A stretch of DNA of 36,094 nt from contig CAMBFA010000018.1 in the NCBI GenBank assembly GCA_945865325.1, forward strand, positions 1-36,094, given 5' to 3'. Below are positions 15,442 through 25,502 of this stretch, piece by piece. The position numbers and the translations under genes were made by a program. Numbering within the stretch: position 1 is the first letter of the stretch; every line of letters starts with the position of its first letter. The notes below the pieces were generated by a model, which ran no database searches, was not told the DNA's origin, and saw only the letters and a list, made by a program, of their open reading frames with translations. The DNA is from Candidatus Kuenenia stuttgartensis (GTDB lineage: Bacteria > Planctomycetota > Planctomycetia > Pirellulales > UBA1268).

Positions 15442-17869
15442 CTAGCGTTTGCGGATCAAGTCAGACATTGCCACGGCGCGGATGATGTCCCTGATCCGGT
15501 ATTCGCTGTTCTTCGCGTCGGCTTCGATCTGCTTCAGGTCGGCTTGATCGTCGACCGTGAGCACGCGGCGGAGGGCGTAGGTGCAGAGGTGCTCAATGAA
15601 GGCTCGGGCGATGTGGCTACGGTCTTCGATGAGCAGCGTTTTGAATTCCATCGAGTCTTGAAACGAGCGACCGTCGGGCATCTCTCCCGAAGCGTCCACC
15701 AACGGATTCTCGCCGATGCCCGTCGGCACCAGTTCGCGCGCGCCATTGGCCCACGGCGTCATAGTGGTCGAACGCCAATCCCAGCGGGTCGATGTTGCGA
15801 TGGCACGCGGCACAACTGGCATTCTTGGCGTGAGCTTCGATTCGCTGGCGGATCGTGATCTTGTTTCCCGTCGGAGGAATCGGTTCGATCGGATCGACGT
15901 TGGCCGGAGGAGGAGGAGGGGTCTTGTTAAAGATCGCCTCGCTAACCCACACGCCCCGATGCACCGGTCGATGGCGAGTCCCATCCGACGTCAACCCGAG
16001 CACCGCGCCCATCGTCAGCAGTCCGCCCCGATGATCTTCCGGCTTGAGAGCGACTCGCTGAAAGCCGCCCGAAATCGGTTCGGGCAGCCCGTAGAAGTCA
16101 CAGAGCCGCGCGTTGGCCATCGTCCAATCGGAATCAATGAAACGGTCGACCGGCATGTTCTCTGCGAACATTACGCGAAAGAACTCGGCGGGCTCGGCAC
16201 GTAGGCTCGTTTCGAGCCATGCGTCGTAATTCGGGTACAGCTTCTTGTCCGGCGGGAACATGCCGAGCCGATGCAGTTGCAGCCATTGACGCACGAAATC
16301 GTTGATGAATCGATTTGTCTTGCCGTCGGCGAGCATCCGGTCGACTTCTTTCAACAGCCCTTCGCCTTGCAGAGCACCACGTCGCGCCGCAGCGAACAGC
16401 CCATCGTCAGGCATCGAACTCCAGAGGAAGTACGACAGCCGCGACGCGAGCTCCGTATCGTTGAGCCGGTCGCGCGCGATCGGGTCGCCTTCGACGAGAT
16501 AGATAAAGTGCCGCGATGTCAGCACTCCCTGCAGCGCAACTCGATAGGCGTCGGCAGGCTTCTCACCGGCATCACATTCCGAGCGAAATGTCCGTACGTA
16601 ATCCGACAGTTCCTCCTTCTTGACAGCCCGCCGCCATGCTCGCTCGGCGAACCGCTGCAAGTGTTCGGCGACCACTTCGATCGTCGCGTCATCAGGCGGC
16701 AGCAGACCGTTGCGTCGCGATCTTTCCGCCTCGGTTTCGAGCGGTCCTTCCCACTCGATCCAATCCAGCAGCACCGTGCCAAAGAGTCCATTTCCCTTGT
16801 CATCGAACATCTGCGGAGCGTTCGGCTCGAGCAGTCGCGATTCGCTGCTATGCGTGAAAATGTAGCTGCCGCTGTTGAGGGCGTTGCGGAAGGCTGCCCC
16901 AGCTCGACGATCAACGACATCGGTCGCGACGACGCAAAAGTCGAGCGACATTGGCATTTCCAGAAAGACTTCACACTCGTGCACCTGCGGGCTGTCCTCG
17001 GGAGCCGTGATGTCGAAATCGATGAGGCCATCGACAGTCTCTTCGCCGGTCCGCTTGCCGATGCTGAGGTGCGCCGTCTGGCCGCCGATCGGACGAATGC
17101 CGCTCGCCTGAATGCGGACTTTGTAAAGCCCGCTGTGCTCCGGACCGCTGTCGCCAAACCAGTTCGGCGAAAGCGCCTCATGCACGTTGCCGGGATAAAG
17201 CAGATGCCGCAGAGGTCGCTTGATACCGAACCGGTCCATCACTTCCTGCTGAGCCTTCCCGCCGTTGTAACGCAGCTCGGCAGCGGTCTTGCGAACCTTG
17301 CGAGCCTCGCCCGACGAAACAGGAAAGGCACGATCCAGCACGAGCCCCGCCGCGCGGTAGTAGCGATCGATATGGGACGCCGAAAGCGACAGCTCGGACC
17401 CAATCCTCTCGAAGCCGTGCCACAGCGTGTCTTCGTTCAGTTCGCCCGGTTTGGCCGGATCGTAGCGCACGCCGAGCAGGTCATAGACCGTATTTTGGTA
17501 TTCCTTGCGACTGAGCCGATAGTGTGCCACCGCCGGCCGCGCTGCCATGCGCGCTGCCTGACCCTCTTGAAGGAGCGAAGCGAGATTCGAGACGAACGCT
17601 GCAATCTCCGCCTGTGTTGGCCGGGGCTCTGTCTGCGGAGGCATTTCGCCACGGTTGACCCTCTCGAGGGCTTCTGCCCAGTTGTGGCTATCCAAGCCCC
17701 CCTTGAAGTCGCGCGACAGCCGGTCGATCCGGATATCTCCCTCTTCCTTCTGCGGGCCATGACAGCAAACGCAGTGCTTCTCCAAAAACGCTTCAAACGG
17801 CTCGGCCCCGTGAACGGCACGACCGAAGCCGAGGCAAGCGGCAAAAAGGAGCCAGTTTCGGACAAGCAT
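15442..17869 (-). pseudogene. Planctomycete cytochrome-like DUF1587/1592/1588/1585 protein with a frameshift
   Basis: The second DUF1592-type gene. I use the ATG at 17869, which gives a signal peptide ([25 protein letters not shown]) directly before the heme motif CVCCH (residues 33-37). Domains in order are PSCyt1, DUF1587 ([21 protein letters not shown]), DUF1595 ([15 protein letters not shown]), DUF1592 ([18 protein letters not shown]) and DUF1588 ([26 protein letters not shown]). There the frame leaves the family pattern and ends at 15617. The missing end ([22 protein letters not shown], then [18 protein letters not shown]1585) continues in another minus frame down to 15442. The break falls in a CGCGCGCG run (about 15735-15743); adding one GC unit restores QWRARELVP. 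It may be a true lesion, slippage or a sequencing error. Confidence 0.8.
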
Positions 17870-18033
17870 CGGATTCGGTCCTTGCGGGCTGGGGTGAGGC
17901 CCGGCCCAAAAACCCGCTGCACGGCTCCCCACCCCGTGAGTGGTGACGCTGCCGGGCAATGACATCGTGCCAGACGGCGGCCGATCCTTTTCGGGTAAGA
18001 TGAGTGTACTGAGTTCGCACGGAGGCTTGCCGC
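17870..18033. promoter_or_regulatory. Divergent intergenic region with start-site RBS for the chaperone operon
   Basis: This 164-base region separates the minus-strand cytochrome block from the plus-strand chaperone operon and must carry both promoters. On the plus side CGGAGG about nine bases before the ATG at 18034 is a strong ribosome binding site and fixes that start. I see no clear -35/-10 pair, and no inverted repeat of the CIRCE type that would point to HrcA control. Confidence 0.5.
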
Positions 18034-20385
18034 ATGGGCTCGAAGAAGCAATCCGATCAGAAACGTCGCCAGGCAGAACTTGCCCGCCGGCGAAAAAACA
18101 GGCTCCACAGTCTCGAGGGCTGGCAGCCTCGTCCGCCCGCGGAGGCCGAGCTGTTGGATCTCGCGCCCATCGCGTCGCCGGATGAGCCGGGGGAAGACAG
18201 GGCGCTGTTCGATCCGGCGGCTCGCCACGCCCTGTCGGCTGATCTTCAGGGCGAGTTGGCCCTCGTCCTGGAGGCGTTCGACCTCTGTGCGCGAGGCGAG
18301 CCGCACGCTGCCCTCGATCGTCTCACGGCGATCGCGCGGAAAAGCCCCTATGCCGACTGGCGGCTGTTCATCCGCGGGCTTGTTCCTTTCCAGCGCGGCG
18401 ATCGCGCTGCCGCCCGGGAGGCCTGGCACCGACTGGAGGCCGGGCGGCGCCCGGCCCGGATCGCCACCACGCTCGACCGCGCGTGAGACGCGGCTACCAG
18501 TGAAGCCGCAGCGCCGGCTGATAGCACGTCGGGGATAGAGGCTGCCGCCGTCAGCCTGATGCGGAGAGCTTCCCTGTGGACCGCTGCCCGTGAGATCGCG
18601 GCGGTCCGGCATCGCGACGGGGAACGTACGTTTTCGGCCTCGCAGGCCGCGCTCGCGATCCGCCTCGAGAAGCACTGTCGCCCGCTCGATCCCGATTTCG
18701 TGAGCGAGTTCTCCGCCGCCTGCCGTGCTCTGGCCTTCCCCCAGTCGAATGACGAACCGTTTCTGGCCCTCTGCCGGAGCACCGCGGGACCGGCCGACGA
18801 TCCCCGCAATACCCGGCTGCAGTTCCTGCATCTCCAGCGGTTCGTCGACGCCGACGATGAGGTTCGGCAGGGCGCGCGGGAGTATGTGGATCGTGATCTG
18901 CCCGGGCTCACGCATCTCCCCGAGCCGCTTCGTGCGGCACTCGCCAGTGTGACCCTCGAGCGGGCCGCCTCTTCGCTCCTCGATCGGGAAGACGGGTTCC
19001 TACGCGATTTGACCCCGCAAGAAGAACGGGTCTGCCAACGGCTGCTGTGCGAGTCGCTCCAGCGCCATCCTCGCAATCGTCGGGCCCACGAGACTCTGAT
19101 CGACCTGCTCGCGACGCTGGCGGAGGAGGACGATTCGCGCGGTGATGCCGGCCGGGCGCTGATCGATGCCAAGCTGGCGTTCGTCGGCCTGTTTCCCGAC
19201 CAGTATCAGCATGTCCGCGACCTCATCGATCGGTTCATCGCCGCGGGAGAGTTCGCGCGGGCCGAGCCGCTGGTGAAAAGCCTCACGGATCAGCGGACCG
19301 GCGACATGGGGTCGAAGGCCACACCCTGGCGATTCGAGCTTCTTCGGGCATCATCGCGGGCGGCGGCGGAGGACTCGCTCCCGGAGGCCCGGGGGGCACT
19401 TGAGGCGGCCATCGCCGCCTGGCCCAACTGGATGCCCCGGAGGTGGATCCCGTTCCTGGAGGCGGCACTGCTGCTCCGCGAAGGGAACGAGGCCGGCGTT
19501 GCGGCGGCGTTGGATGCCGGCCGGCGGGAGTCGCCGGACGACCTGACCAGCGACATGATGCTCCATGAGGCGTTGGTGCGACTGAAGTGCCCGGCGGCGA
19601 GAATCGAGCCGATCCGCATGCGAATTCAACACGCCGCAAAGAATGTGGCGATCGACTCCACGATCGCGCCGCTGGCGCATGTCGCCTGCTTCTTCATGGA
19701 GCTTCAACGATGTGGGATTCCGCTCGCCGGCGAGGATCACCCCGCGTTCGCCATCGGCCGGGCATTCAGTCGACGACTGGGGCTGGATGGCACATGGACG
19801 CTGGGCAGCTTGTTCGGCGGGGTGAGCGACCTGCCGGTCAACGATCCCGGGTTCTGGGCCGCGTTCCGCTGGCTCACGACCCATGATTTCTTCGGCACGG
19901 TGAATCCTAAGCGCGAGCCCAAGGGCATCGCCCGACTGGCCGACAACCAGCCCCGGGCAGCCGCGGAAGTGCTCGAGTGGCTGACTCGGACCGCCCCCAG
20001 TTCGCTGACGACCCGGAAGGCTGAGAAACGGCTCACCCTCGTGGAAAAGTTCATCGCGACCGAGCAGAATCCGGCGACGGCCCAACGACTGCGTGGAATC
20101 GTCACGGCAGCCCGGCAGGCGATCGAAGCGGCCAAGGACCAGAAGCGACAGGCACGGTTTCGGTCCGCAGGCCGTGGCTTTGCCCCGCCGGGGGGCGCCC
20201 TCGGCTCGTCCAATTTGCCCCCTTTGCTGCAGGTCATCCTCGAGCGCGGCGGCCCGGAAGCGGTGGCCGAAATCGTCCCGCTGCTCATGGGGCCGATGAA
20301 CGAAAAAAACGCGAGGCGAATCGCGAGCCTCGCGGCCCGGCTGGGGATCTCACCAGACGAGATGATCGATTTGTCGGAGCTTTGA
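18034..20385 (+). pseudogene. Large helical repeat protein of the Hsp70 operon, interrupted by an in-frame UGA
   Basis: Two track ORFs, 18034-18486 (150 residues) and 18559-20385 (608 residues), lie in the same frame, separated only by a TGA at 18484-18486 and 24 open codons. Read through, they give one ~783-residue protein. It has a Lys/Arg-rich start ([21 protein letters not shown]), then helical repeat-like stretches ([63 protein letters not shown]) that resemble TPR-like folds, and a C-terminal block LPPLLQVILERGGPEAVAEIVPLL. The second ORF has no ribosome binding site before its ATG, so it is unlikely to be a separate gene. It leads the chaperone operon, 38 bases before the J-like gene, and may bring substrate to the Hsp70. 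CGA to TGA is the simplest change. Confidence 0.65.
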
Positions 20386-20423
20386 CAGCACCTGCAGCAG
20401 CCTTTGACCGGAGGGTTTCCACC

Positions 20424-20756
20424 ATGGCCGACAACATGCCGTTCAACGGGCTCCCACCGGCGGCCCATCTCGCCCTCGGACTGCCCGCCACGGCTACGCC
20501 GGAGGAGGCCCGCGCCGCATATCTCGAGGCAGTCAGGCAGCATCCACCCGACCGCGAACCGGAGCGGTTTCGGGAATTGCACACCGCCATGCAGGCTTTC
20601 TGCGACCCGCTGCCGCTGGCAGAATCGGCCTTCCAGCCACCACAGCCGCGGGCTGCCCTCGAGGCGATCATCGTCGCCGCAGCCTCGCGGCCGCCGCGGC
20701 TCCCCACGCGCGTGCTCCTGGCCCTTGGCAACGCCCCCCAGGATCGCGACGGATGA
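20424..20756 (+). CDS. J-domain-like protein with HPP in place of HPD
   Basis: A 110-residue cytoplasmic protein. Residues about 12-55 follow the J-domain plan: HLALGLPATATPEEARAAYLEAVRQHP, a short loop, then ERFRELHTAMQAFCDP, which mimics the usual F.....AY..L.DP of helix III. The loop that normally reads HPD reads HPPDRE, so the Asp needed to stimulate DnaK ATPase in classical J-proteins is displaced by one residue. The C-terminal half (LEAIIVAAASRPPRLPTRVLLALG) is helical and unrecognised. GGAGGG eight bases upstream fixes the ATG at 20424. Its stop overlaps the start of the GrpE-like gene (ATGA), implying translational coupling. The role as an Hsp70 partner is inferred from fold and context. 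Confidence 0.7.
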   Translation: MADNMPFNGLPPAAHLALGLPATATPEEARAAYLEAVRQHPPDREPERFRELHTAMQAFCDPLPLAESAFQPPQPRAALEAIIVAAASRPPRLPTRVLLALGNAPQDRDG

Positions 20757-21598
20757 GCAGCGCCCCCATCGATCATGAGCCGGAGGACGAATCCAATCTT
20801 GTCGGCGCCGCTGACATCGTCGCGGAGTTCACCGCCCTGCGGCACGAGCTCAAGCTCCAAGTCAGGGCGGGCCGGGATCTGACCGCGGGGCTCGAGGGCC
20901 TCGTCGACGGCTGTCTCGACCGCCGCCTCGGCATTGTGGCCGAACGGCTGTCGCGATTGGAAACCGCACTGCAGTCGGTCGTCGCTGGCACTCCGGCCAG
21001 GCTCGCGGCCGCCGGGAGCACCGAGGCGATCCGCCCGTTGGCCATGGCACTCTCGGAAGTCGAGGAAAGCCTGGAGCGGGCAGTGATCGCCATCGCCACC
21101 GAGGGCGAAACGATCACTGCCAGCGCGACGGATACCGACGAATCGACCGCTCGCGAAACCGCCGACGCAGCGCCGCCGGAACCGGCCGCTGCCTGGGATT
21201 CCTGCCTCGCCGAATCCTCATGGCTGGTGCGCACGCTCGCGGCCGGCCTTGTCGGCCGACTGCGGCAGGTCTTCGACGCGCACGTGCGCCGGGCCACAGG
21301 GGACGGTGAGCGGCGTGCCGGCATGCCGCGGGAGGCGGTCGCCGCGGCCGCGACGTCGCTGGCCGATGCGGGGCAGGGGCTCGAGCTCGTGCTCGTGAGG
21401 ACGCGGCGGCTGATGGAGCAGGCGGAGATCCGACGGATCGACGTGCTTCACGAGCCGTTCGATGCGGACCGGATGCGGGCGATCGACATCGCGGAGGATC
21501 CAGCGGTGCCGGCGGGGCACGTGGCCAAGCAGTACCGGCCCGGATATCTGCTCCGCGACGTGGTGCTGCGGCCGGCCGAGGTGGGAGTGTCCCGTTGA
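20753..21598 (+). CDS. GrpE-like nucleotide exchange factor with long N-terminal region
   Basis: A 281-residue protein, longer than ordinary GrpE (about 180-200). The last ~60 residues carry the GrpE beta-wing pattern: AEIRRIDVLHEPFDADRMRAIDIAEDPAVPAGHVAKQYRPGYLLRDVVLRPAEVGVS, matching the family's G.EPFDP...HEAV, then P.GTV....RGY...DRVLRPA.V.V. Residues about 20-115 are helical and could form the dimerising helix. They are followed by an acidic, Thr/Ala-rich linker (TASATDTDESTARETADAAPPEP) and another helical section. It should release ADP from the Hsp70 encoded directly downstream. The start overlaps the J-like gene by ATGA, and the stop overlaps a TTG in the next gene's frame. Confidence 0.8.
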   Translation: MSSAPIDHEPEDESNLVGAADIVAEFTALRHELKLQVRAGRDLTAGLEGLVDGCLDRRLGIVAERLSRLETALQSVVAGTPARLAAAGSTEAIRPLAMALSEVEESLERAVIAIATEGETITASATDTDESTARETADAAPPEPAAAWDSCLAESSWLVRTLAAGLVGRLRQVFDAHVRRATGDGERRAGMPREAVAAAATSLADAGQGLELVLVRTRRLMEQAEIRRIDVLHEPFDADRMRAIDIAEDPAVPAGHVAKQYRPGYLLRDVVLRPAEVGVSR

Positions 21599-21601
21599 TC
21601 G

Positions 21602-21614
21602 GGAGGGAGAGGAG
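21602..21614 (+). promoter_or_regulatory. Ribosome binding site of the Hsp70 gene
   Basis: GGAGGGAGAGGAG is the strongest Shine-Dalgarno-like sequence in the operon. Its last GGAG lies ten bases before the ATG at 21625 and supports that start over the overlapping TTG at 21595. A further GGAAG six bases before the ATG at 21652 would support that shorter start, which also fits Hsp70 N-termini. Confidence 0.5.
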
Positions 21615-21624
21615 TGACCACACT

Positions 21625-23415
21625 ATGGACACGTCAGATCGGAAGCAAGCCATGACGGACGACTCGCCGGTGATCGGCATCGATCTGGGGACGACCAACA
21701 GCGTCGTCGCCATCTCCATCGACGGGCGGGTGCGGGTGCTCGAGGAAGGCGGCACGGCCCTGGTGCCGTCGGTCGTCGGCATCGGAGCCGACGGCCGCCT
21801 GCTCGTGGGGCAAGCCGCCCGCAACCAGCTCGCCGCCTTTCCGGACCGCACGATCGCCTCGGTGAAGCGGCGCATGGGCCAGGCCGTGACGCTCCCCATG
21901 GCCGGCACGTCCTACACGCCGCAGGAGATCAGCGGCGTCATCCTCCAAGCGCTGAAGGCTCGTGCCGAGCGTGCCCTCGGCCGCCCGGTGAGCCGGGCCG
22001 TGATCACGGTACCCGCCTTCTTCGACGAGCCGCAGCGACAGGCCACGCTGGAGGCGGGGCGGCTCGCCGGGCTGACCGTCGAGCGGATCATCAACGAGCC
22101 GACCGCCGCCAGTCTCGTCTATGACGCCGGCTCCGATGAACGTCGGCACGTCATGATCTATGACCTCGGCGGCGGCACGTTCGACGTGTCGATCGTGCGG
22201 ATGGAGCGGGGCGTCGTGGAGGTGCTCTCCAGCAAGGGAGACACGAGCCTCGGTGGCGACGACTTCGACGAACTGCTGGCCCGGTATGTCGCCGATCGAT
22301 TTCTCCAGGAGCATGGCCACGACCTCATGGCCCACGGGAGCACCCGCTGGCGTTTGCTCACCGGCTGCGAACGGGCGAAGTGCGAGCTTTCGACCGCCGC
22401 CACGGCGCGGATCGTCGAGGAGTTCATCGCCACGGTCAAGGGCCGACAGGTCAGTCTCGACATTGATGTCAGCCGCGACGAGTACGAGCGGTTGATTCGC
22501 ACGCTCGTGGACCGGACGATCGTCTGCGTCGACATGGCGATTGTCGATGCCGGGCTCTCGCTCTCCCAGATCGACGAATTGATCCTCGTCGGCGGCTCGT
22601 CCCGCACGCCGCTGGTGCAGCGTCGGCTCCGCGAGGAATTCAGGCGCGAGCCGCGGTGGAGCGTCGATCCCGATCTCGCCGTCGCGCTCGGCGCGGGCAC
22701 GCAGGCCGCGGCGATCGCCGGGCTGGCGATCGGCCCGGTGCTCGTCGACGTCGCCACGCACACGCTGGGGATCGCGGCCATGACCGACGGCCCCCACGGC
22801 GCGCACCTCGCCTTCTGCCCGATTCTGCACCGCAACGCACCGCTTCCGGCCCGCTTCGAGGATCTTTTTTTCACCCACGACGACATGCAGGACATGGCCG
22901 CCATCGAGGTCTTCCAGGGGGAGAGCCCGCGACTGGAGGAGAACCGCAAGATCGGTCACTTCATGCTCGAGGGGCTCAACGCCTCGTCCGATTGCGACGG
23001 GCGGATCCACGTGCGGTTCGAACTCTCGCTCGATGGCACGCTCGAGGTCACCGCCATCGAGAGCAAGTCTGGCATCTCGCAGCGACTGGCGATCGTCGAT
23101 GCACTCTCGACGATGAAAAACGCGGCGGGGGCGGCCGAACGACTCGGGCGGCTCCCCGGTTTCTCGTCAGCGGTCGCTGCGACCGCAGCCCATCAGGCCG
23201 GCGGCGGCGTTGCGAGCGATCCGGCCCCTGCCGATCCACATGCTCCGATCCTCCACCGGGCCAAGCGGGCACTTGCGACCCTCGGCCCGGAGGATGCGGC
23301 CGACGTGGAACGACTGCTGCAGCTGGTCGCCGAGGCGCGGGCTGAGGGCGACGAATCGCTCCTCGGCGGGCTCGTGGCGGAGCTCGACGATCTCTTGTTC
23401 TATGCAGCCGGTTGA
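21625..23415 (+). CDS. Hsp70/DnaK-family chaperone (accessory paralogue)
   Basis: An ATP-driven folding chaperone of the cytoplasm, 596 residues from the chosen ATG. The ATPase domain is complete: phosphate-1 IGIDLGTTNS (from about residue 17), AVITVPAFFDEPQRQATLEAGRLAGL, connect-1 IINEPTAAS, phosphate-2 IYDLGGGTFDVSI, SLGGDDFD and the adenosine motif LILVGGSSRTPLV. The substrate domain is recognisable (VDVATHTLGIA..., NAPLPAR, IEVFQGESPRLEENRKIGHFMLEGL). The lid is short and Ala-rich, so the protein is a little smaller than housekeeping DnaK (~640). The genetic company (GrpE-like, J-like, zinc ribbon, repeat protein) points to a dedicated system. Starts at 21595 (TTG) and 21652 are possible. 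Because it deviates in the lid and its partners are unusual, I do not call it dnaK. Confidence 0.9.
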   Translation: MDTSDRKQAMTDDSPVIGIDLGTTNSVVAISIDGRVRVLEEGGTALVPSVVGIGADGRLLVGQAARNQLAAFPDRTIASVKRRMGQAVTLPMAGTSYTPQEISGVILQALKARAERALGRPVSRAVITVPAFFDEPQRQATLEAGRLAGLTVERIINEPTAASLVYDAGSDERRHVMIYDLGGGTFDVSIVRMERGVVEVLSSKGDTSLGGDDFDELLARYVADRFLQEHGHDLMAHGSTRWRLLTGCERAKCELSTAATARIVEEFIATVKGRQVSLDIDVSRDEYERLIRTLVDRTIVCVDMAIVDAGLSLSQIDELILVGGSSRTPLVQRRLREEFRREPRWSVDPDLAVALGAGTQAAAIAGLAIGPVLVDVATHTLGIAAMTDGPHGAHLAFCPILHRNAPLPARFEDLFFTHDDMQDMAAIEVFQGESPRLEENRKIGHFMLEGLNASSDCDGRIHVRFELSLDGTLEVTAIESKSGISQRLAIVDALSTMKNAAGAAERLGRLPGFSSAVAATAAHQAGGGVASDPAPADPHAPILHRAKRALATLGPEDAADVERLLQLVAEARAEGDESLLGGLVAELDDLLFYAAG

Positions 23416-23434
23416 GCGGATCGGAGGAGCCAGG

Positions 23435-23665
23435 ATGACCGCCGACCAGCCCCGCAACGAAGGGCCCATCATCCAGTGCCCGGTCTGCCGAGCCACCCAG
23501 ACCGCCCGCCAGGTCTGCCGCCGCTGCAGCGCCGACTTGGCGCTCTTTGTGCGCACACGAATCAGCGGTCTGGCCGCGCGGCGGCGTCTCGCGGAGGCCG
23601 TTGCCGCCGGCGACGCCGTGGCACAGGCCCGGCTGCAGGGATACCTGCGCTGGCTGCACGGATGA
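23435..23665 (+). CDS. Small double-CxxC zinc-ribbon protein of the Hsp70 operon
   Basis: A 76-residue protein missed as a separate line in the track (it is the end of the ORF 23210-23665). GGAGGAG just upstream fixes the ATG at 23435, 19 bases after the Hsp70 stop. CPVCRATQTARQVCRRC carries two CxxC knuckles about 13 residues apart, as in zinc ribbons. The rest is an Arg/Ala-rich helix (AARRRLAEAVAAGDAVAQARLQGYLRWLHG). A client-binding or assembly role, like the zinc domain of DnaJ, which is separate here from the J-like domain, is a reasonable guess from position. Function is not shown. Confidence 0.75.
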   Translation: MTADQPRNEGPIIQCPVCRATQTARQVCRRCSADLALFVRTRISGLAARRRLAEAVAAGDAVAQARLQGYLRWLHG

Positions 23666-24056: not shown

Positions 24057-24275
24057 AAACCTCCTCGTCGACCGACTCGAAGGGCGCCTCAAAGCAACAA
24101 GACCCTTGCCGATCCGAGACCGTCCAGCGGCAGTCGGAGGACCGGCTTCGATGCGCGACCACCGACGCCAATCCCGATTCCATTTGGGAAAAAAGGAGAC
24201 GGCGGCTGACGTGCGGGGATCAACAACGCCACGACTGGCTTGCATTTCAAAACTTCAGGTTTTATTCTGCAAGGC
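23942..24275. other. Non-coding stretch before the DUF4143 ATPase gene
   Basis: About 330 bases with no intact gene. The left third holds the PIN-domain remnant on the minus strand. The right part has lower GC (CATTTCAAAACTTCAGGTTTTATTCTG) just before the ATPase gene, a plausible promoter zone, but I cannot point to a convincing -35/-10 pair. Confidence 0.4.
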
Positions 24276-25502
24276 ATGAAACGAGCCTGTGAGCCCCTTT
24301 TTGCCGAGTATCTCGCGGCGTTTCCCTGCATTGCCATCATTGGCCCTCGGCAGTGCGGCAAGACCACGCTGGCTGGGTCTCTGCCTGCCGATTGGCGCCG
24401 GTTCGACCTGGAGAGAGGGAGCGACCGGGATCTCGTGGCCCGCGATCCAGACCTTTTTTTTCGCCTCCATCCCCGGCGGGTCGTGATCGATGAGGCCCAA
24501 CTCCTGCCCGACCTCTTTCCGGCCCTGCGGGTCGCCATCGATGCCGATCGTTCGTCGGCCGGGCGGTTCGTGATCACCGGTTCGAGTTCTCCCTCACTCC
24601 TGCGGCGCGTGTCGGAGACGCTGGCCGGCCGGATCGCCACGATCGAATTGGCGCCCTTCGCATGGAGCGAGGTGCATCCATCTCACGGGGGTCCGAACTT
24701 CGCCGATCTTCTGGCCGACCGTTCTGCGACAGCCGCCCAGTTCCTTGCGCTGCGGGCCCGCGGCAACATCCAGCAGGTGCACGACTACTGGCTCCGCGGA
24801 GGCTATCCCGAGCCCTGGCTCAAGCCGGCAGACCGATTTCGGGCCATGTGGATGTCGCAGTACGTCAAGACCTACGTCGAACGTGACATCGGCCGACTCT
24901 TTCCCGGGCTCGACCAGGACCGATTTCGGCTTTTTCTGCAGCACCTCGCCGGCCTCTCCGGAACCATCATCAATCATGCCGATGTCGCCCGCGGTCTGGG
25001 CGTCTCCCCTCCGACCGCGCGGGACTATTTTGAGATCGCCCACGGCACGTTTCTCTGGCGCAGGCTTCCGCCCTATGTGAAGCAGGCGACGAAGCGGCTC
25101 GTCAAGCATTCCAAGGGACATCTGCGGGACAGCGGCCTGCTGCACCGCCTGCTCCATCTCGCCAACCTCGACGCCCTGCTCGGCCACCCGCAGGCGGGCC
25201 GATCATGGGAGGCGATGGTGAGCGAGGAGATTCTCCGGCAGCTGGAATGGCGAGGGCTCGACTGCGGCGCCTTCTTTTATCGCACCTCGGCCGGCGCGGA
25301 GATCGACCTCATCCTCGAGGGGGACGTCGGGCTCGTGCCGATCGAGATCAAGTCCACGCACACGATTGACCGCCGTCGTCTGGCGGCCCTGCGCGAATTC
25401 GTCGCCGACCGCCGGTGCCGGTATGGCCTCGTGATCACTAACGACACCGAGCCGCGGCTGCTCGACGAGGCGATCGTCGCGATTCCGTTCTCGCACCTGT
25501 GA
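24276..25502 (+). CDS. AAA ATPase with DUF4143 C-terminal domain
   Basis: A 408-residue cytoplasmic protein of the widespread AAA_14/DUF4143 group. Walker A is AIIGPRQCGKTTL (about residues 22-34), Walker B RRVVIDEAQLLPDLF, and VITGSSSPSLL is the sensor-like stretch. Further on come WMSQYVKTYVERDIGRL and a winged-helix-like part (INHADVARGLGVSPPTARDYFEI). The C-terminus GAEIDLILEGDVGLVPIEIKST has the D...E.K pattern of a PD-(D/E)XK nuclease-like fold. Genes of this group are scattered in bacterial genomes, often near toxin-antitoxin or mobile regions, and their role is not settled. The track ORF starts at a TTG (24240); the ATG at 24276 is closer to the family N-terminus. It is flanked by the decayed PIN toxin. 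Confidence 0.85.
   Translation: MKRACEPLFAEYLAAFPCIAIIGPRQCGKTTLAGSLPADWRRFDLERGSDRDLVARDPDLFFRLHPRRVVIDEAQLLPDLFPALRVAIDADRSSAGRFVITGSSSPSLLRRVSETLAGRIATIELAPFAWSEVHPSHGGPNFADLLADRSATAAQFLALRARGNIQQVHDYWLRGGYPEPWLKPADRFRAMWMSQYVKTYVERDIGRLFPGLDQDRFRLFLQHLAGLSGTIINHADVARGLGVSPPTARDYFEIAHGTFLWRRLPPYVKQATKRLVKHSKGHLRDSGLLHRLLHLANLDALLGHPQAGRSWEAMVSEEILRQLEWRGLDCGAFFYRTSAGAEIDLILEGDVGLVPIEIKSTHTIDRRRLAALREFVADRRCRYGLVITNDTEPRLLDEAIVAIPFSHL

What the first reader, a model, noticed from the sequence alone, without database searches (positions are those of the whole stretch)
18034..23665. Self-contained accessory Hsp70 operon with unusual partners
Five plus-strand genes form one unit: a large helical repeat-like protein, a J-like protein, a GrpE-like protein, an Hsp70 and a 76-residue double-CxxC protein. 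They have short gaps or ATGA/TTGA overlaps. Each piece of a chaperone cycle is present but altered: J-like protein with HPP, GrpE extended at the N-terminus, Hsp70 with a short lid, zinc ribbon split off from the J-protein. This looks like a dedicated client-specific system, distinct from housekeeping dnaK-grpE-dnaJ. Established: motif identities of Hsp70 and GrpE. Inference: the genes act together and serve a particular client.
Basis: partly seen in the sequence, partly recalled or inferred. Interest (0 to 1): 0.8.

Follow-up and report, generated by a model that had tools for sequence, protein, structure and literature searches.

The report
Five-gene self-contained Hsp70 chaperone machine
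This stretch encodes a complete second Hsp70 protein-folding machine (Hsp70, exchange factor, J-like helper, helical-repeat scaffold and zinc protein) that travels as one unit through several bacterial phyla, and its helper protein always lacks the histidine thought essential for switching Hsp70 on.

Summary
The operon is real. Five plus-strand genes encode a TPR-solenoid protein (A), a J-like protein, a GrpE-like protein, an Hsp70 and a small zinc-ribbon protein (ZR). The window's gene A is cut by one in-frame TGA where its closest relative has Trp.

The order A-J-GrpE-Hsp70-ZR recurs in 80 of 95 related loci; most of the rest are contig-truncated. They come from Planctomycetota, Acidobacteriota, Thermodesulfobacteriota/Myxococcota, Lentisphaerota, Riflebacteria and Pseudomonadota. 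No sixth gene is conserved. All five proteins diverge in step (pairwise r 0.85-0.94).

The Hsp70 groups apart from housekeeping DnaK, which this genome also has, with its own grpE and dnaJ. Its ATPase and J-docking residues are conserved, but it lacks the 76-101 insert and has an altered linker and a reduced lid.

'HPP' was a register slip: the motif is P-P-D/E in the place of H-P-D. The catalytic His is absent in 95 of 95 loci; Pro and Asp/Glu are kept.

Best reading: an autonomous, horizontally spread Hsp70 machine in which the TPR protein recruits an unknown client through the J-like protein. It is a new variant of a known kind; I found no description in the open-access library. The client and the activity of the His-less J protein are unknown.

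The parts
18034..20385 (+).
   Evidence: Full-length homology to the uninterrupted L034 ortholog. TPR Pfam families match several of 26 relatives, at most 9 for one family and none for the closest ortholog. All-helical model, pLDDT 83, with TPR scaffolds as PDB matches
18484..18486 (+). In-frame TGA inside gene A (Trp in L034): nonsense mutation or sequencing/assembly error
   Evidence: purifying selection on both sides of the stop, dN/dS 0.23 and 0.29
20424..20756 (+). J-like protein, 110 aa: J-domain with shortened II-III loop, His-less motif, conserved C-terminal tail
   Evidence: GGAGG at 20410-20414
20544..20552 (+). P-P-D codons at the place of H33-P34-D35 of DnaJ
   Evidence: (His absent in 95 of 95 loci)
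20753..21598 (+). GrpE-like nucleotide exchange factor, 281 aa; only the C-terminal half matches GrpE, N-terminal half divergent
   Evidence: Pfam GrpE E 7e-15 at residues 200-280; below all NCBIfam GrpE cut-offs
21625..23415 (+). Hsp70, about 596 aa, lacking the 76-101 insert, altered linker, reduced lid
   Evidence: alternative starts TTG 21595 and ATG 21652
23435..23665 (+). ZR: 76-aa zinc-ribbon protein, CxxC-x9-CxxC plus helical tail
   Evidence: CxxC-CxxC in 91 of 91 relatives; GGAGGAG at 23423-23429

Best explanation
A dedicated, self-contained Hsp70 machine inherited as one five-gene block. SHOWN by sequence: an Hsp70 outside the DnaK clade with intact ATPase residues; its own GrpE-type exchange factor; a J-like protein that keeps the Pro and Asp/Glu but not the His of HPD; a TPR solenoid; a zinc-ribbon protein; all co-inherited. 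INFERRED: the TPR protein binds or presents the client, or fixes the machine to a surface through its basic tails. The J-like protein docks on the Hsp70 through the kept Asp/Glu35-Arg167 and Pro34-Pro419 contacts and links TPR protein and client to it through its conserved tail. ATP hydrolysis traps a client segment in a substrate-binding domain with a reduced lid, and the operon's GrpE then releases ADP. The zinc ribbon is an adaptor or redox switch. The missing His implies that hydrolysis is triggered weakly or differently, perhaps only when client and TPR protein are bound.
For: Order conserved in 80 of 95 loci in several phyla; no shared sixth gene; co-divergence r 0.85-0.94 against a shuffled maximum of 0.25; separate housekeeping set; Hsp70 clade; ATPase and J-docking residues conserved, linker, pocket and lid changed; His33 absent but Pro34 and Asp/Glu35 kept in 95 of 95, with the contact roles of these residues taken from PMC8215388; conserved J tail, compare AtcJ, whose tail binds an operon partner (PMC6715715); TPR solenoid.
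Against: No client, expression or interaction data. Replacing the HPD His with Gln abolished stimulation in every system tested (PMC8215388), so the J-like protein may not stimulate at all. In this window gene A carries a stop codon, so this particular copy may be partly dead. Q378, the second partner of Asp35, is Leu in about half of the Hsp70s. Co-divergence also reflects shared descent.
Confidence: 0.6

Rival explanations
1. The J-like protein is a non-stimulating tether or brake, comparable to the His-less mitochondrial Pam16. Housekeeping DnaJ-type proteins supply the ATPase stimulation, and the J-like protein only holds the Hsp70 on the TPR protein or restrains it.
For: His of HPD absent in 95 of 95. 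The Hsp70 keeps R167, L391, D393 and P419, so an ordinary DnaJ could dock. Housekeeping DnaJ is present in the genome.
Against: Asp/Glu35 and Pro34 are kept in 95 of 95, which a pure tether would not need. Each operon brings its own GrpE, as if the whole cycle were private. No second, HPD-bearing J gene accompanies the operon.
Confidence: 0.25
2. A spare general-purpose DnaK system for stress, without a particular client, kept for proteome complexity as proposed for duplicated DnaKs.
For: DnaK duplication correlates with proteome complexity (PMC11019930); the fold and ATPase residues are DnaK-like.
Against: The Hsp70 is not a recent DnaK duplicate. It is always tied to the same TPR and ZR proteins. 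Pocket and lid are altered. Distribution is patchy within genera.
Confidence: 0.08
3. A conflict or anti-phage system like the GAP1-N2 GTPase neighbourhoods that include HSP70, GrpE and DnaJ- or TPR-fused proteins.
For: Similar kinds of part (PMC7159879); patchy distribution and transfer between phyla.
Against: No GTPase, effector or other conserved partner beside the five genes; no PADLOC match above noise.
Confidence: 0.05

Closest known systems
Housekeeping DnaK-DnaJ-GrpE
   Same: Hsp70 with intact ATPase and J-docking residues, a GrpE-type exchange factor and a J-domain protein
   Different: Separate Hsp70 clade, altered linker and pocket, reduced lid, no 76-101 insert; J-like protein without the HPD His; obligatory TPR and zinc-ribbon partners; present beside the housekeeping set
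HscA/HscB and HscC/DjlC specialised Hsp70 systems
   Same: Accessory Hsp70 with dedicated J-protein; HscC also lacks the 76-101 region
   Different: Those work without GrpE (PMC8215388), whereas this operon has its own GrpE; different clade in the tree
AtcJABC of Shewanella (PMC6715715)
   Same: Short J-protein with a C-terminal tail encoded next to its partners; the tail binds an operon partner
   Different: AtcJ keeps HPD and uses the housekeeping DnaK; no Hsp70 or GrpE in that operon
MxDnaK2/SglK with MXAN_6672 GrpE in Myxococcus (PMC11019930)
   Same: Second Hsp70 with its own GrpE in one operon
   Different: SglK is a true DnaK (62% identical to E. coli DnaK) and the operon is bicistronic
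Pam16-type J-like proteins
   Same: J-domain without a proper HPD motif (general knowledge, not tested here)
   Different: Mitochondrial, membrane translocase, works paired with Pam18
Ruc/Rv0991c zinc-ribbon chaperone (PMC7448276)
   Same: Small CxxC-CxxC protein near Hsp70 genes
   Different: 17 residues between the CxxC pairs and a disordered tail, against 9 and a helical tail here
GAP1-N2 GTPase conflict neighbourhoods (PMC7159879)
   Same: HSP70, GrpE and DnaJ- or TPR-fused proteins together
   Different: Defined by GTPases, which are absent here

Membership tests
Hsp70 superfamily | Nucleotide-binding domain with conserved ATPase residues plus beta substrate-binding domain | tested here: met
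   Pfam HSP70 1e-128; conserved D8, K70, E171, T199, D201; model
DnaK (housekeeping equivalog) | Score above the curated DnaK cut-offs and place in the DnaK clade | tested here: not met
   456.7 against 648 and 446 against 822.55 bits; outside the clade of E. coli and Planctomycetota DnaK
HscA / HscC | Score above the HscA cut-off, or grouping with HscA or HscC | tested here: not met
   Below both main HscA cut-offs; separate in the tree, though HscA and HscC are long branches
GrpE | GrpE domain above the Pfam cut-off | tested here: met
   55.5 bits against 25.8; only profile positions 84-164
J-domain proteins | J-domain sequence similarity | tested here: met
   Family profile matches PDB J-domains, E 3e-12; the window protein alone is below the Pfam cut-off
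J-domain proteins (functional co-chaperone) | HPD motif | tested here: not met
   His33 replaced in 95 of 95; Pro34 and Asp/Glu35 kept
J-domain proteins (functional co-chaperone) | Stimulation of Hsp70 ATPase | not testable with these tools
   needs biochemistry
TPR proteins | TPR repeats or alpha-solenoid | tested here: met
   TPR families in relatives, model and structure matches, PDB TPR profile matches; the window and L034 proteins alone have no significant TPR hit
Ruc redox chaperone | CxxC-x17-CxxC with disordered tail | tested here: not met
   Spacing 9 in the window protein; Ruc spacing from PMC7448276
Known anti-phage systems | Match to PADLOC models | tested here: not met
   Only two matches near E 0.007

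The most novel reading that the evidence does not exclude
A whole Hsp70 machine, spread across several phyla, in which a J-like protein with P-P-D/E instead of H-P-D is still the productive trigger of its cognate Hsp70. The His-to-linker contact would be replaced by other chemistry or made conditional on the TPR-bound client: an HPD-independent mode of Hsp70 activation.
Probability: 0.35. Interest if true: 0.8.

Novelty: new variant of a known kind. Interest (0 to 1): 0.62.

Why it matters
Activation of Hsp70 by the His-Pro-Asp motif of J-domains is treated as universal, and replacing the His or Asp abolished it in every system tested (PMC8215388). A naturally His-less J protein, strictly co-inherited with an Hsp70 that keeps the docking arginine and with its own exchange factor, is a ready-made experiment on how the trigger works. 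The finding also suggests that bacteria pass on complete Hsp70 machines as five-gene units, including in named hosts with a complete genome such as Sulfidibacter corallicola, so the role can be tested by gene removal.

Tried and rejected
'HPP' as the J motif: rejected, because two alignments (to E. coli DnaJ; to PDB J-domains) put the first Pro on His33. A separate small gene upstream of gene A (ORF 18034-18486): rejected; it is the N-terminus of gene A cut by a TGA. A zinc ribbon derived from DnaJ: no evidence. Ruc-family membership: rejected on cysteine spacing. Defence system: nothing above noise in PADLOC, no effector neighbour. Conserved sixth gene or client beside the operon: none. Fusions that would name the client: apparent open-frame read-throughs, plus one ZR-proA-like fusion in L112 that looks local. 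SglK as a homologue: rejected, since it is 62% identical to E. coli DnaK (PMC11019930). The first genome-contig query (all 30 J-like sequences) had no stretch conserved enough. Frequency counts centred on Acidobacteriota and Pseudomonadota were not possible. Two key J-protein papers are not in the library. Gene A start codons in relatives were chosen partly by basic-residue content, so I do not count the basic N-terminus as evidence; the C-terminal count is free of that bias.

Full report
WHAT IS IN THE SEQUENCE. The window is contig C18 of a draft genome of about 4.4 Mb, 89% complete. Between 18034 and 23665 lie five collinear plus-strand genes: A, a J-like protein, a GrpE-like protein, an Hsp70 and a 76-residue zinc-ribbon protein (ZR). 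J and GrpE overlap by ATGA. The best starts, judged by GGAGG-type ribosome sites, are ATG 20424 (J), ATG 21625 (Hsp70) and ATG 23435 (ZR). Gene A is split in this copy by a TGA at 18484-18486. The ortholog in L034, about 70% identical, reads Trp there and homology continues on both sides. Selection on the part after the stop looks like that on the part before (dN/dS 0.29 and 0.23), so the stop is recent or an artefact. The neighbouring PSD/DUF1592-DUF1588 gene (15617-17965, minus) has its DUF1585 end in another frame, a second lesion within 3 kb that makes a base-calling or assembly error more likely.

CONSERVATION. Searches with the Hsp70 alone found the lineage in 29 of 347 genomes of the order and 26 of 392 of the phylum. 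It is patchy: in the window's own genus only its own genome of 12 searched had it, and three other genomes of its family. I fetched about 40 of these loci. Profiles grown from the window's five proteins found the same five genes in the same order and strand in nearly all loci long enough to show it. A named-genome scan with the J-like protein returned 67 loci, a few of them repeats of contigs already held. The complete operon is in Acidobacteriota (Bryobacterales/Solibacter and others), Thermodesulfobacteriota and other 'Deltaproteobacteria', Lentisphaerota, Riflebacteria, Magnetococcales, Candidatus Accumulibacter and the complete genome of Sulfidibacter corallicola M133, where a second copy exists (L245). 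Of 95 loci with J, GrpE and Hsp70, 82 have all five genes and 80 have the order A-J-GrpE-Hsp70-ZR. One Planctomycetota contig, seen twice, has Hsp70-ZR-A-J-GrpE. A few contigs are counted twice; 77 of the 82 are distinct. No sixth gene is shared: the commonest flank family is in 11 of 98 loci. The pairwise divergence of the five proteins is tightly correlated, r 0.85-0.94 against a shuffled maximum of 0.25.

SEPARATE FROM HOUSEKEEPING. The same genome has DnaK on C94 and grpE and dnaJ on C133. All seven operon-bearing genomes tested, several of them single-contig, have a separate high-scoring DnaK. In a tree of 65 Hsp70s (IQ-TREE, quick mode, SH-aLRT support) the operon proteins form one group (93%; 99% for the 42-row core), while housekeeping Planctomycetota DnaKs, E. 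coli DnaK and HscA group at 100%. Planctomycetota, Acidobacteriota and Desulfobacterota sequences interleave, which points to horizontal transfer. Caveats: the quick method was used, HscA, HscC and L187 are long branches, and L187 (Myxococcota, J-GrpE-Hsp70 only) falls outside. The window protein scores below every NCBIfam DnaK, HscA and GrpE cut-off it was compared with.

HSP70. In 94 operon Hsp70s the ATPase residues (D8, K70, R151, E171, T199, D201) and the docking residues R167, T173, L391, D393 and P419 are invariant (D8 and K70 are gapped in one row), and N170 is kept in 90. The 76-101 insert is absent in all, whereas all 29 housekeeping DnaKs used have it. The linker reads mainly [R/P]-V-L-V-D-V/I instead of V-L-L-L-D-V. 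Several peptide-pocket positions (397, 403, 404, 429) are changed. The AlphaFold2 model (pLDDT 89) shows nucleotide-binding domain and beta-sandwich, then a poorly ordered stretch and three short helices, without the long lid helices of DnaK. The closest solved structures are DnaKs: Geobacillus 2v7y is first by sequence and second by fold.

J-LIKE PROTEIN. Sequence profiles recognise a J-domain. Its loop between helices II and III is six residues shorter than in E. coli DnaJ. Position 33 is Pro 84, Ser 6, Thr 3, Gly 1, Arg 1 and never His; Pro34 is 95 of 95; position 35 is Asp 62 or Glu 33. Many of these loci were found through the Hsp70, and the scan patterns do not include this motif, so the result is not a search artefact. 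In the DnaK-DnaJ structure His33 bonds the backbone of linker residue L391, Pro34 packs on P419 and Asp35 bonds R167 and Q378; replacing His by Gln or Asp by Asn abolished stimulation in every tested system (PMC8215388). The operon family keeps two of the three contacts, with R167 and P419 invariant on the Hsp70 side (Q378 is kept in about half), and loses the third, next to an altered linker. A conserved C-terminal tail follows the J-domain, as in AtcJ of Shewanella, whose tail binds an operon partner (PMC6715715).

GENE A AND ZR. Gene A is a TPR-type superhelix with a conserved early repeat around SP-L/Y-A-x-W-R/K. Thirty-three of 89 copies end in a strongly basic tail; the other four gene products almost never do. 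The solved-structure matches are generic TPR scaffolds, so they do not name a partner. ZR keeps CxxC-CxxC in 91 of 91 and in many relatives carries TPR-like helices (judged by eye). Its 9-residue spacing excludes the Ruc family (17 residues; PMC7448276).

HOW IT MOST LIKELY WORKS. Shown by sequence: five co-inherited parts; an Hsp70 with intact ATPase residues; its own exchange factor; a J-like protein with Pro-Asp/Glu but no His. Inferred: the TPR protein recruits the client and the J-like tail joins it to the Hsp70; the J-domain aligns on R167 and P419; hydrolysis is triggered weakly or only with client and TPR present; GrpE resets the cycle; ZR is an adaptor or redox switch. The main rival is that the J-like protein only tethers or restrains the Hsp70, as Pam16 is thought to do (general knowledge; the papers were not read in detail), and ordinary DnaJ does the triggering. 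A defence role has no support here.

NOVELTY. The parts belong to known families, but the five-gene combination, its spread and the uniform loss of the HPD His were not found described in the open-access library. Two papers on bacterial J-proteins could not be read, so prior mention there is possible. I file it as a new variant of a known kind.

Noticed in passing
window 15442-17965 (minus strand): A planctomycete PSD/PSCyt (DUF1587/1592/1588) protein has its DUF1585 end in a different frame (ORF 15442-15984): a frameshift about 3 kb from the TGA in gene A, which suggests base-calling or assembly errors on this contig.
   Followed up: partly
window 24240-25502: AAA_14/DUF4143 ATPase just downstream of the operon; not conserved beside other copies.
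   Followed up: no
L245 (Sulfidibacter corallicola, G727:C1 3555000-3569500): Second copy of the five-gene operon in the same complete genome as L192; its J-like protein has TPD in the place of HPD.
   Followed up: partly
L187:7987-10487 (Myxococcota MAG): J (PPD motif)-GrpE-Hsp70 without the TPR and zinc-ribbon genes; the Hsp70 falls outside the operon clade. It may be a stripped or sister system.
   Followed up: partly
L242:3834-8601 (G709): Another accessory Hsp70 followed by a coiled-coil/TM protein and a larger J-like protein whose motif reads KPEK instead of HPDK: a second kind of His-less J partner.
   Followed up: no
L112:3747-5483 (minus strand): The zinc-ribbon gene reads in frame into a gamma-glutamyl phosphate reductase (ProA)-like protein; a fusion or a missed stop.
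   Followed up: no
L116:7808-9874 (minus strand): The GrpE reading frame is preceded by a long degenerate tandem repeat (units like TEKDETENIVAEENYSLNQ), a possible repeat-extended N-terminus.
   Followed up: no
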